64,000 bases of DNA from Dehalococcoidia bacterium (lineage in GTDB: Bacteria; Chloroflexota; Dehalococcoidia; Lucifugimonadales; UBA3495): positions 62,001 through 126,000 of the forward strand of contig JAJDTP010000001.1 of assembly GCA_022827095.1 (NCBI GenBank), in the 5' to 3' direction. This document shows positions 5,728 through 16,901 of this stretch, in pieces; the stretch's first letter is position 1, and each line of letters begins with the position of its first letter. The position numbers were made by a program, and so were the translations under genes. The notes beneath the pieces are model-generated. The model was not told the DNA's origin and searched no databases. It worked only from the letters and a program-made list of their open reading frames with translations.

Positions 5728-6930
5728 TTACCGGGACAGGCCGTAGGCGGTGGCCTGGAGTTTGGCGTCGCCGGTGGCGTTGAGGCGCTGGGTGATGCTG
5801 TCGATGAGGGCGCCGACGGCGGTCTCGCCCCAGAACCAGGTGTGGATGTCGGCCTCGGTGTCGCCGGGGCGCTGGGCCATGCGGGCCTCGTAGCAGAAAG
5901 CCTTGAGGTCGTCGGCGCAGTAGCGGGCGAACTGGGGCACGGACACGTCGGCGGGGCGTTCGTCCATGTCGGCGTCGTCGCGTTCGGCGTAGGCTTCCAG
6001 GAAGCGGATGATGCCGCGGAAGCGGCGCTGGGGGATGCCGGTGACGCCCACGGCGGTGCGGCCGCGCTGTTCCTGCCAGCGCTCGTAGTAGCCGCGCAGG
6101 GCGGTGATCTCGTCGGCAGCGCCCAGGGGTTTAACCGTGTCGCCGTTGCTCGAAGCCGTCACCTCGGATGCCTGGGGGAGCCCGATGGGGCCGGCATCCT
6201 CGGGATAGTCGGCCAGGACGGGGCCGGCGTCGGCGTCGAGAGTCGCCAGGGCGGCGGCGAGGACTTGGTGCTGGAAATCGGGGTCGTCGGGCTTGCCCAT
6301 GGTGTAGCCGAAGTAGAAGGGAACCCACAGGGCACGGGGCGGACGAACGCGCTCGGCGTGTTCACGCACGAGGGCGATGGCAATGGTGGTCAGGCCGGTC
6401 TCCTCGAAGACCCGGGCAAGCACGCTCACGGCGTGGGTGCAGAGGGGTCAAGTGGGGGTCAGCAGGACGAGGTCGACGCCCTCGGCCTTGAGGCGCTGGG
6501 CGACCTCGGGTCCGGTCTGCTCGGCGACGACGGTGCAGTCGCGGAGGGCGCCCATGAAGGAGTAGTGGTTGGGGGCGACGGCGCCGATGACGCCGCGCTC
6601 GGCCAGTTCCCGCACGCGATCCATGGGGAAGGTGATGTTGATGTCGCGGTAGATGGCGGTGCGGTCGAAGCCGATGCTGAAGTGGCTCTGCACGATGTCC
6701 GCCGGGTCGGAGTCGCTGGGAATGACGCGGTAGGTGGACTCGCCGCTGGGATGGTCGCGGTTGAAGGGCTTGTCGTCGCGCAGGTGGAGGCCGGCGGTGG
6801 TGACGATGGCCATGGTGCTGTCGGCCAGGGGCTTGGACAGCGGCGCCCAGGGTGTGCCCTCGTCTTCCCGGCAGGGGAAGAACTGGAGCATCTGGCGCTG
6901 GACTTCGGACAGAACGGACAGGCGGGGCAT
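5728..6930 (-). CDS. GrdB/PrdB-type reductase selenoprotein, in-frame TGA read as selenocysteine
   Basis: Two abutting same-frame ORFs (6448-6930 and 5728-6429) are separated by one TGA at 6448-6450. Joined, they give a 400-residue protein resembling the glycine/sarcosine/betaine/D-proline reductase selenoprotein B family. The N-terminal part holds DINITFPMDR, GVIGAVAPNHYSFMG and VDLVLLTPT. The TGA follows at once, then PLCTHAVSVLARVFEETG. This places TGA at the first position of the family's UxxC redox motif, where homologues carry Sec or Cys. The next block (RPPRALWVPFYFGYTMG) continues the family pattern without a break. A small hairpin sits just past the TGA (see 6421-6435). A good Shine-Dalgarno (AGGAG) precedes the ATG. 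The alternative is a pseudogene with one nonsense mutation. The substrate is unknown. Confidence 0.8.
6421..6435 (-). promoter_or_regulatory. Candidate bacterial SECIS hairpin
   Basis: On the minus strand, 15 nt after the first base of the TGA, a perfect 5-bp stem CACGC/GCGTG encloses the loop CGTGA. A G is the second loop base. The loop begins 17 nt after the TGA, inside the 16-37 nt spacing and small-apical-loop rules described for bacterial SECIS elements. A lower pairing GACCC (starting in the TGA) with GGGTC could extend the structure. Confidence 0.55.
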
Positions 6931-6945
6931 GGGAGTCTCCTGAGG

Positions 6946-7853: not shown

Positions 7854-8954
7854 TCAGTCGAACATGATGGCGCCGCGGCCGATTTCGCCGCGGTCGAGGT
7901 CGTCGTAGGCCTCGTTGATCTGGTCGAGGGTGTAGTGGCGGACGACCAGGTCGTCGAGGTTGAGCTTGCCGGACTGGTAGAGGTCGACCATGACGGGCAT
8001 GTCGGTGCGGGAGCGGGCGGAGCCGTAGTAGGAGCCGCGCAGGGTCTTCTCGTTGCGGACCAGGTCGACGGCGTTGATGCCGGCCTCCTGGCCCCAGGGG
8101 GCAATGCCGACGACGGTGACGACGCCACGCTTGGCGGCCATATCGTAGGCGGCCTTGGTGGTGTCGCCGCTGCCGAAGACCTCAAAAGTGTAGTCGGCGC
8201 CGCGTCCGCCGGTGAGGTCCTTGACCTGACGAACCGGGTCCTGGTCGGCGGCGTTGACGGTGTGGGTGGCGCCGAAGCGCATGGCGAACTCGAGCTGGGC
8301 CTCGCGGATGTCGACGGCGATGATCTGGCTCGCATTGGCCAGGGCCGCGCCCATGATGACGTTGAGGCCGACGCCGCCGCAGCCGATGACGGCGACCGTG
8401 CTGCCAGCCTTGATCTCGGCGCTGTAGAGGGCCGCGCCGACGCCGGTGGTCACGGAGCAGCCGATCATGGCGGCCTTGTCCATGGGGACGGGGCTGGACA
8501 CGGGCACGACGCCGGTTTCGGGAAGCACAGCGTACTCAGCGAAACAGGCCACCTTGCCCATGTGGTGGATGGCCTGATCGCCGGCGTGGAGTCGGGTTGT
8601 GCCGTCGAGCAGGTTGGCGCCGGTGGCCGCGTGGAGGTCGCACAGGTTGCTGTGGCCCTCGAGGCAGGAGCGGCAGCGTCCGCAGGCGGGGACGAAGGAC
8701 AGGATGACCTGGTCGCCCTCGGAGGCCAGGGTCACGCCCGGGCCGGTCTGGACTACGGTGCCGGCGCCCTCGTGTCCGAGGACGACGGGGATGGCGATGG
8801 GGGCGTCGCCGTGCATGAAGTGGCGGTCGCTGCGGCAGATGCCGGCGGAACCGACCTTCACCAGGACCTCGCCGGCCTTCGGCTCGTCAAGGTCGACCTC
8901 GCAGATGTCGAGAGGCTGACCAACTTCCCACAAAACGGCAGCTTTTACCTTCAA
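7854..8954 (-). CDS. Zinc-dependent medium-chain alcohol dehydrogenase
   Basis: An MDR-superfamily enzyme oxidising an alcohol, or reducing an aldehyde, with NAD(P). The catalytic zinc site is seen in GICRSDRHFMHGD and GHEGAG. The structural zinc loop has CGRCRSC followed by a fourth Cys in HSNLC. The Rossmann motif GCGGVGLN is present, followed by a D at the end of beta-2 (IIAVDI) that suggests NAD preference. I chose the TTG start at 8954 because an AGGAGG Shine-Dalgarno lies 8 bases upstream; the longer frame to 9014 has none. The product is 366 residues, normal for the family. A palindrome at 9011-9030 lies in its promoter region. Confidence 0.9.
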   Translation of the reverse strand: MKVKAAVLWEVGQPLDICEVDLDEPKAGEVLVKVGSAGICRSDRHFMHGDAPIAIPVVLGHEGAGTVVQTGPGVTLASEGDQVILSFVPACGRCRSCLEGHSNLCDLHAATGANLLDGTTRLHAGDQAIHHMGKVACFAEYAVLPETGVVPVSSPVPMDKAAMIGCSVTTGVGAALYSAEIKAGSTVAVIGCGGVGLNVIMGAALANASQIIAVDIREAQLEFAMRFGATHTVNAADQDPVRQVKDLTGGRGADYTFEVFGSGDTTKAAYDMAAKRGVVTVVGIAPWGQEAGINAVDLVRNEKTLRGSYYGSARSRTDMPVMVDLYQSGKLNLDDLVVRHYTLDQINEAYDDLDRGEIGRGAIMFD

Positions 8955-9010
8955 AACGGGTCCCTCCTGATGGTGACGGCGCGGATAATCGCGGTTGCGG
9001 CGCGCCGGGT

Positions 9011-9030
9011 ACAAATAGTTGGACTATTGT
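9011..9030. promoter_or_regulatory. Operator-like palindrome upstream of the alcohol dehydrogenase
   Basis: The arms ACAAATAGT and ACTATTGT flank TGG and pair apart from one bulged A. The site is 57 bp upstream of the dehydrogenase start, where a repressor site would fall. The rest of the 295-bp gap (8955-9249) is locally AT-rich near 9090-9115 but shows no clear promoter or gene. Confidence 0.35.
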
Positions 9031-14597: not shown

Positions 14598-16901
14598 TTG
14601 ACTAGCCCCACCGCGAATACCGTCGACCGGCCCAACGGCAAGTCGCCCCTGTCCGGACCCGAGATCGTTCCCGACTTTGAAGCGGCGCTGACGCGGCTAT
14701 GCGCGATTGCGCGGCGGGGCCAGCGCGTCGACAGTCCTTTGTACAACCCCTCGGAAGATTGGATTGTGGAGAGGATGCGTATCTTCCAGGACCTGCCGGA
14801 GCAGGAGCGGGTGGAACTGCTGGCCGAGGCGCAGGCTTTGGAAACCGAGGCGGCAGAGGCCAACGCGGCGGGCCGAGCGTCCAGCAAGGTTTGGCCGGAA
14901 ACGGTGTTCCGGCTGGACAATGGCGGGCTGGCGTTCTTCAGCCAGTTGGGTGTGGTGCGGCGACCTGACCTGACGCAGTACTTCGTGGAAGGGTTCACGC
15001 GAAACCGGGACGCCCTGGCGTTCTCAGAGGAGAACCAGCGACTGTTCACCGAGGTGTTCAACCGAGTTTGCGACAAGATGGAGGCCCACTTTGCCAGCGG
15101 AGAGGGCATCGTGCAGACCGACCGGCAGATATGTGATGCGCCAGGTCGGTCTTTTCATGCGCGGCAACTGCTGTTCGGGACGCGCTACATGCAAGCGCCG
15201 TACATGTGGCGTAGACTGACCTTCGAATTGCCGCAGGACCAGTGGCAGGGCTACCCCGACATCCTGGAAGTGTCGGTTCCGCACTGGATGGACGACCTGG
15301 ACCTGGATGCCGGACTGAAGTCGCGGCTGCGGGAAGCTGGTATTACCCAGTTGGTATTCAAGGCGCCGACGCGGGGTCTCTCGCTGCACTTCGGGTTCGA
15401 CTACGTAGGCGAGCACAAGATGGGCCCGTTGTCCATCGCCATGCACCAAGTGAAGCAAAAGAACGGGCTGGCGGTGCAGGCGGCGCTGAGCATGGCGCGC
15501 GTGCGCAAGCTGGACGGCGACGTGGCCAACACGGCACTGGTCACCGTGGGGCCGTCGCTGCACGGCAAGAGCACGCTGACCATCATGGTGGAACTGGCCA
15601 ACAGCGAGCTGGCCGGCGTGCTGGGCCTGGAAACCGACCCCGAGGAAGGGGTCTACCCCATGAACGACGACATCGTGCTGCTGCAACCGCTGGATGATCC
15701 CATCCCGAGCAATCGAGGCGGACGGCGGGCGATGATCTCCCACGCCATCGACGGCACGGAGAACAATTTCTACGCCGTGCCCTTCGGCCTGACGCGGGAT
15801 GACGATCCGATCACCTACGACGTGCTGCGCGGCGCGCCAGGCGTCACCTCACCGGACGAGACACTGGAAAACGTGCCGGTGCACGTGGACAGCCAGGAGC
15901 CCAACTACCTGGAGAATCCGGTGCGCAACATGCGCATGATCCTGTCGAGGAAGGGGCTGCTGCAGCGCAAGGGCGCGGCCGGCCTCATCTCCGAGATCAC
16001 CGGCGGGCGTCTGACCGACTCGGTGCACGTGCCCATGGAGAACACGGACCGGGTCTTCTGGCAGGAGGTGATGCGGCAGAACACGGTGATACCGCCCCTG
16101 CGTCGTTTGAGCCTGGAGCAGTACATCAGGGTGCTGATGTACGGCGAGGCGGTGCAGATGGGAGCGGCCATCGGCGCCATCGGGCGGCCGTACGTGGAGT
16201 ACTTCTCCGACCCGTTCATCATTGGCCTGGAGGACGAGAACGCCAACCTGCTGTACCACGTGCTACAGCAACTGGCCTGGGGCGGGATGCCGCAGGAATA
16301 CTACGCCTTCAACACCGGCGGAGTGGGAGCCGACAGCAACGAGGAAGCGTCGGGTTCGCGCTACCGCAAGATACCGCGCGAGCTGACGATGATGCTGCAG
16401 GAGGCGCTGCTGCGGAACGCGGTCAAGTTCGAGTACGACGGGATGCTGCGGTCGGAGGTGGCGGTGGCGATCCTGGACGGCGACGGCAACGAGGTGGTTG
16501 ACCTGCGCCAGGACTGGCTACCGGTCAACATCTATGGCGAAGAGGACTACGCCGGCCGAGTGGTTGAGCTGATGCGTCGACGGTACTACGGCCGGGACCA
16601 GCAGGACAAGGCGGGGATTCTCCGCTACACCAAGGTGGTGAATACCATCCTGGATATCACCGACGCTCCGGCTCCGGCCAACGAGCGGGAACTGTCGTGG
16701 CTGCTGTCGTTCTACTGGTCGCTGGACCAGGCCTACGAGACCCTGGCCGAGACGGCGGCGCACCGCTCCGAAGGAATGCGACCGGTCGCCTACCAGATCA
16801 GGGAGCTGCAGCGGAAGTGCGACGCCGGATTGGGCAACGGGTTGGCGTTGGGTGACTCGGCCCTGACGAGCCTGGCCGAGCTGGGGTTGCGGGCAGGCTA
16901 G
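14598..16901 (+). CDS. Divergent ATP-type PEP carboxykinase-like protein
   Basis: A 767-residue protein. A kinase P-loop GPSLHGKST at residues 318-326 sits where ATP-dependent PEPCK has its Walker A, and an acidic MNDD at 355-358 matches the metal-binding strand. It is about 230 residues longer than classical PckA, with extra N-terminal helices and a helical C-terminus, so identity is tentative. If active it would interconvert oxaloacetate and PEP. The TTG start at 14598 has GGGAG 7 bases upstream. Malate synthase follows on the same strand, a sensible partner because glyoxylate-shunt malate feeds oxaloacetate to PEPCK. Confidence 0.65.
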   Translation: MTSPTANTVDRPNGKSPLSGPEIVPDFEAALTRLCAIARRGQRVDSPLYNPSEDWIVERMRIFQDLPEQERVELLAEAQALETEAAEANAAGRASSKVWPETVFRLDNGGLAFFSQLGVVRRPDLTQYFVEGFTRNRDALAFSEENQRLFTEVFNRVCDKMEAHFASGEGIVQTDRQICDAPGRSFHARQLLFGTRYMQAPYMWRRLTFELPQDQWQGYPDILEVSVPHWMDDLDLDAGLKSRLREAGITQLVFKAPTRGLSLHFGFDYVGEHKMGPLSIAMHQVKQKNGLAVQAALSMARVRKLDGDVANTALVTVGPSLHGKSTLTIMVELANSELAGVLGLETDPEEGVYPMNDDIVLLQPLDDPIPSNRGGRRAMISHAIDGTENNFYAVPFGLTRDDDPITYDVLRGAPGVTSPDETLENVPVHVDSQEPNYLENPVRNMRMILSRKGLLQRKGAAGLISEITGGRLTDSVHVPMENTDRVFWQEVMRQNTVIPPLRRLSLEQYIRVLMYGEAVQMGAAIGAIGRPYVEYFSDPFIIGLEDENANLLYHVLQQLAWGGMPQEYYAFNTGGVGADSNEEASGSRYRKIPRELTMMLQEALLRNAVKFEYDGMLRSEVAVAILDGDGNEVVDLRQDWLPVNIYGEEDYAGRVVELMRRRYYGRDQQDKAGILRYTKVVNTILDITDAPAPANERELSWLLSFYWSLDQAYETLAETAAHRSEGMRPVAYQIRELQRKCDAGLGNGLALGDSALTSLAELGLRAG

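What the first reader, a model, noticed from the sequence alone, without database searches (positions are those of the whole stretch)
6421..6930. Probable selenoprotein: GrdB/PrdB-like gene with in-frame TGA and SECIS-like hairpin
Seen: two same-frame halves meet at a single TGA located exactly where the family has its UxxC redox pair (LTPT-TGA-PLC). The sequence on both sides keeps family motifs. A 5-bp hairpin with a G in its loop begins 15 nt from the TGA and its loop at 17 nt, within known bacterial SECIS spacing. Other genes in the window use TGA as a stop, so the code is standard. Inference: the lineage decodes UGA as Sec for this catabolic-type reductase in a non-clostridial gene context (no grdA, prdA or thioredoxin genes adjacent).
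Basis: partly seen in the sequence, partly recalled or inferred. Interest (0 to 1): 0.85.

Follow-up and report, generated by a model that had tools for sequence, protein, structure and literature searches.

The report
Orphan PrdB-like selenoprotein, sponge-associated SAR202
A marine, often sponge-associated, uncultured bacterium reads one UGA codon as the rare amino acid selenocysteine to make a 400-residue relative of clostridial proline and glycine reductases; the selenium site is known from other proteins, but here it is joined to an undescribed helical domain and the usual partner subunit was not found in the genome.

Summary
The gene is longer than stated: window 6930..5728 (-), 400 aa, with in-frame TGA at 6450-6448 (LTPT-U-PLCTH). 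The genome carries tRNA-Sec, selA, selB and selD. All 39 full-length orthologues found in relatives have one TGA and no Cys form; homologues with Cys at that column (AG-C-PLC) occur only in a separate short clade. The hairpin is in 38/38 orthologues at identical geometry, with a GU-containing loop and compensatory stem changes, against 1 of 1745 TGAs in the window (this one). Sequence after the TGA is under purifying selection (dN/dS 0.08-0.16). The lineage is SAR202/Dehalococcoidia. The pyruvoyl partner (GrdE-type, PF09338) and GrdA were not found in this genome or 13 congeners, so it is probably not a proline/glycine reductase subunit. "PrdB" UxxC selenoproteins have been known as abundant marine proteins since 2005, so this is a new variant of a known kind. 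Substrate unknown; mechanism inferred.

The parts
5728..6930 (-). Whole selenoprotein gene, 400 aa with Sec at residue 161; ends at TAA
   Evidence: Read-through translation; 39 full-length orthologues with one TGA each; start MPRL conserved; stop TAA
6448..6450 (-). In-frame TGA read as selenocysteine (U161 of UPLC)
   Evidence: Cys in the same column in distant short homologues
6421..6435 (-). SECIS-like hairpin: stem CACGC/GCGUG, loop CGUGA with GU
   Evidence: Present in 38/38 orthologues, compensatory pairs at two of five positions
6196..6861 (-). GRDB/PrdB-like redox core, residues about 24-245
   Evidence: Pfam PF07355 1.7e-11; NCBIfam TIGR04483 1.2e-46 on residues 28-231
5731..6147 (-). 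C-terminal all-helical domain, residues about 262-400, no Pfam or PDB match
   Evidence: AlphaFold2 mean pLDDT 92; no family or structure match
6936..6942 (-). Possible ribosome-binding site (AGGAG) upstream of the ATG
   Evidence: Read directly from the sequence; not tested
7854..9014 (-). Upstream zinc-dependent alcohol dehydrogenase, same strand, syntenic in 17 of 38 loci
   Evidence: Pfam ADH_zinc_N and ADH_N; neighbour clustering; functional link not shown

Best explanation
The gene encodes a selenoprotein. SelB, bound to Sec-tRNA and to the hairpin just after the UGA, inserts selenocysteine at residue 161 (supported by comparative evidence, not by experiment). Sec161 and Cys164 form a UxxC redox pair in a GRDB/PrdB-like core. 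Inferred: the selenolate attacks a polarised substrate atom and the Se intermediate is resolved by Cys164, as proposed for proline and glycine reductase, with electrons from a cellular dithiol. Because no pyruvoyl (GrdE/PrdA-type) partner was found in the genome, the protein probably works as a stand-alone reductase, with the fused C-terminal helical domain supplying substrate binding or docking in place of the missing partner. The substrate is unknown and is unlikely to be D-proline or glycine. The confidence given is for the selenoprotein identity and the orphan PrdB-like core; for the stand-alone C-X reductase role with the helical domain as stand-in it is about 0.5.
For: tRNA-Sec 66.4 bits (cut-off 47) with anticodon TCA; selB, selA and selD over cut-off, selD itself with one in-frame TGA. 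All 39 full-length orthologues have exactly one TGA, and every match in relatives that spans the column has a TGA. Distant short homologues have Cys in this column. Hairpin in 38/38, with covariation GC/AU and CG/AU, 100% paired against 93.5% in shuffles; loops CGUGA, UGUAA, GGUCA, AGUCU, GGUCU. Codons in and next to the hairpin are frozen: synonymous difference 0.00-0.05 at codons 164, 166, 170 against a gene mean of 0.49. dN/dS after the TGA 0.08-0.16 in 12 pairs. PF09338 was found in 9 of 60 genomes but not in this genome or 13 congeners; GRDA likewise not found in these. Fusion domain: 139 aa, pLDDT 92, found only next to this core; the fused form is one clade, SH-aLRT 98.
Against: No expression, 75Se or mass-spectrometry data. 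The genome is a draft in 35 contigs, 97.65% complete, so absence of partners is not proof; but three congener assemblies of a single contig (G003, G007, G011) lack PF09338 too. The PrdA model (TIGR04480) had no positive control in that search. The role of the C-terminal domain is inference from fusion and absence of a partner only.
Confidence: 0.9

Rival explanations
1. It is a true D-proline reductase PrdB (or glycine reductase GrdB) subunit acting with a distant, unrecognised partner in Stickland-type catabolism.
For: Core matches TIGR04483 at 1.2e-46 and has the UxxC motif. Genuine Grd clusters occur in other genera of the same family.
Against: Score 159 against cut-off 300; GrdE-type family not found in own genome or 13 congeners; GrdA not found there; no Prd genes nearby; extra C-terminal domain.
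Confidence: 0.07
2. The UxxC core serves as a thiol peroxidase or disulfide oxidoreductase for redox defence, not as a C-X bond reductase (still a selenoprotein).
For: UxxC pairs are common in redox-defence selenoproteins (PMC2398784); weak sub-threshold glutaredoxin/thioredoxin-type matches around the motif. The lineages are marine, many sponge-associated.
Against: The whole core is GRDB-like, and the glutaredoxin-type matches are not significant. No direct test.
Confidence: 0.3
3. The TGA is a real stop: two separate polypeptides, a pseudogene or a sequencing error.
For: TGA is used as a stop by other genes here; a GTG at 6429 could start the second half.
Against: TGA conserved in 39 of 39 full-length orthologues, including single-contig assemblies; purifying selection on both sides; hairpin covariation; uninterrupted Cys homologues; Sec machinery present.
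Confidence: 0.02

Closest known systems
Marine 'proline reductase PrdB' selenoprotein family (pfam07355, UxxC; PMC1088965, PMC2398784)
   Same: Same Pfam family, same UxxC Sec motif, abundant in marine metagenomes
   Different: Here a full gene is seen with a C-terminal helical fusion not listed among the fusions named in PMC2398784, assigned to SAR202, and the pyruvoyl partner family was not found in the genome
D-proline reductase subunit PrdB (TIGR04483)
   Same: Core homology over about 200 residues, UxxC
   Different: Below the family cut-off, 400 aa against a 238-position model, PrdA not found, no prd operon
Glycine/sarcosine/betaine reductase selenoprotein B (GrdB/F/H)
   Same: Matches the C-terminal half of these models including the Sec site
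   Different: Lacks their N-terminal half; GrdE-type family and GrdA not found in the genome
FarB/FarE monofluoroacetate reductase of Cloacibacillus (PMC10838667)
   Same: GrdB-type Sec protein proposed to attack a polarised C-X bond, with a variant partner lacking the pyruvoyl site
   Different: FarB keeps a FarE partner and lacks the conserved CxxC; here no partner was found and UxxC is kept

Membership tests
Bacterial selenoprotein | In-frame TGA conserved at a redox site with Cys in homologues | tested here: met
Bacterial selenoprotein | SelA, SelB, SelD and tRNA-Sec in the genome | tested here: met
Bacterial selenoprotein | SECIS hairpin just downstream of the TGA | tested here: met
   bSECISearch itself not run
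Bacterial selenoprotein | Selenium incorporated in the protein | not testable with these tools
   Needs 75Se labelling or mass spectrometry
GRDB superfamily (PF07355) | Pfam score over gathering cut-off | tested here: met
   44.4 bits against 22
D-proline reductase PrdB (TIGR04483) | Score over the equivalog cut-off | tested here: not met
   159.1 bits against 300
D-proline reductase PrdB (TIGR04483) | PrdA/GrdE-type pyruvoyl partner in the genome | tested here: not met
   PF09338 not found in own genome and 13 congeners, found in 9 of 60 genomes; TIGR04480 gave nothing but had no positive control
D-proline reductase PrdB (TIGR04483) | UxxC motif | tested here: met
Glycine reductase protein B | GrdA partner in the genome | tested here: not met
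   PF04723 not found in own genome and congeners, found in 4 of 40 genomes

The most novel reading that the evidence does not exclude
A self-contained selenoreductase class in SAR202 and other Chloroflexota in which a new helical domain replaces the pyruvoyl subunit of proline/glycine reductases, catalysing reductive C-X cleavage of an unknown marine substrate.
Probability: 0.25. Interest if true: 0.7.

Novelty: new variant of a known kind. Interest (0 to 1): 0.45.

Why it matters
SAR202 bacteria are widespread in the ocean and in sponges and few of their enzymes are characterised. A conserved selenoprotein with no Cys form among the orthologues sampled here suggests a reaction where Cys is not good enough. 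It also shows that 'PrdB' labels in marine selenoproteome surveys may mislead: at least in this genus the proline reductase partner was not found. Automatic annotation that stops at the TGA would split the gene into two fragments.

Tried and rejected
Structure searches with the whole model found only generic Rossmann-type folds for the core (best Z 7.7, not informative) and nothing convincing for the C-terminal domain (Foldseek best E 1.4; best Z 5.7), which does not prove a new fold. Profile searches against the PDB sequences gave nothing significant. A contrast of SelA presence between genomes with Sec and Cys forms gave no clear separation, since most Cys-bearing genomes also have selA. Neighbour analysis gave no conserved partner beyond synteny in the genus and one related group. 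Literature searches for SAR202 with selenocysteine found only a note that SelA/SelB are enriched in sponge symbionts. The domain hit at G482:C17 that seemed stand-alone proved to be fused to the same core.

Full report
Observation. On the minus strand the ORF starting at 6930 meets TGA at 6450-6448 and the frame stays open to TAA at 5730-5728, giving 400 residues with one TGA. Two other genes in the window end in TGA.

Machinery. The window lies in a 3.79 Mb draft genome (35 contigs, 97.65% complete). It holds tRNA-Sec (66.4 bits, anticodon TCA), selB, selA and selD, which itself has an in-frame TGA in HCAG-U-AAKLS followed by a hairpin with a GGU-containing loop.

Relatives. In 99 genomes (own plus 98 relatives) all 39 full-length or nearly full-length orthologues (the others 52-96% identical to the window protein) have exactly one TGA, and every match spanning the column has a TGA. 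In 400 genomes drawn from the phylum the fused form is always Sec; Cys occurs in a separate short clade with AG-C-PLC at the same column. The phylum has further short Sec forms, including UGLC variants. Named records place the orthologues in SAR202 / Dehalococcoidia.

Hairpin. All 38 orthologues examined have a 5-bp stem at +16-20/+26-30 with GU at loop positions 2-3; stems CACGC/GCGUG, CACAC/GUGUG and AACGC/GCGUU keep pairing through double changes. In the window only 1 of 1745 TGAs, this one, has that geometry. Codons 164, 166 and 170 show synonymous difference of 0.00-0.05 against a mean of 0.49, and the codon before the TGA is ACT in 31 of 38 although ACT is 14% of Thr codons in these genes. 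dN/dS after the TGA is 0.08-0.16. Together these make a stop, pseudogene or error very unlikely.

Identity. Residues 28-231 match PrdB at 1.2e-46 but at 159 bits against a cut-off of 300, and Pfam GRDB at 1.7e-11. Residues 262-400 form an all-helical domain predicted at pLDDT 92 with no significant Pfam hit in 40 members and no convincing PDB match. Within the sampled phylum it occurs only fused to this core, and the fused proteins are one clade.

Partners. The GrdE-type family PF09338 was found in 9 of 60 genomes but not in this genome or 13 congeners, three of whose assemblies are a single contig; GrdA was found in 4 of 40 genomes and not in these. The relatives that have both families carry real Grd clusters, separate from the gene studied here. 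A PrdA-specific search found nothing but had no positive control. Hence the protein is unlikely to be a proline or glycine reductase subunit.

Mechanism. Proposed for the family in the literature (PMC10298544, PMC10838667): the selenolate attacks a substrate carbon polarised by a carbonyl partner, and a thiol resolves the selenium intermediate. Inferred here: Sec161 and Cys164 do the same chemistry without that partner, the helical domain taking over substrate binding or docking. A redox-defence role cannot be excluded.

Known context. 'PrdB' selenoproteins with UxxC were reported as abundant in the Sargasso Sea in 2005 and in GOS samples in 2008 (PMC1088965, PMC2398784). The fusions listed in PMC2398784 do not include this one. 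In the papers searched I found no report of this family in SAR202. I therefore class it as a new variant of a known kind.

Noticed in passing
L024, G000:C20:25694-26614: SelD of this genome is itself a selenoprotein (HCAG-U-AAKLS) with a GGU-loop hairpin after the TGA.
   Followed up: partly
G014:C131, G017:C259, G018:C1, G052:C1:1209632-1213178: Other genera of the same family and order carry real Grd clusters (GrdE-type, GRDB and GrdA with TGA), distinct from the gene studied here.
   Followed up: partly
G482:C27:8511-13239 (L172): Three neighbouring copies of the long Sec form, with a further divergent fused copy at C17 (L171 2481-3650).
   Followed up: partly
G258:C428:22974-24072 (L168): A copy with two extra in-frame TGAs and frame breaks; decayed or misassembled.
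   Followed up: no
window 14598-16901 (+): 767-aa protein with only a weak match to ATP-type PEP carboxykinase over 200 residues.
   Followed up: no
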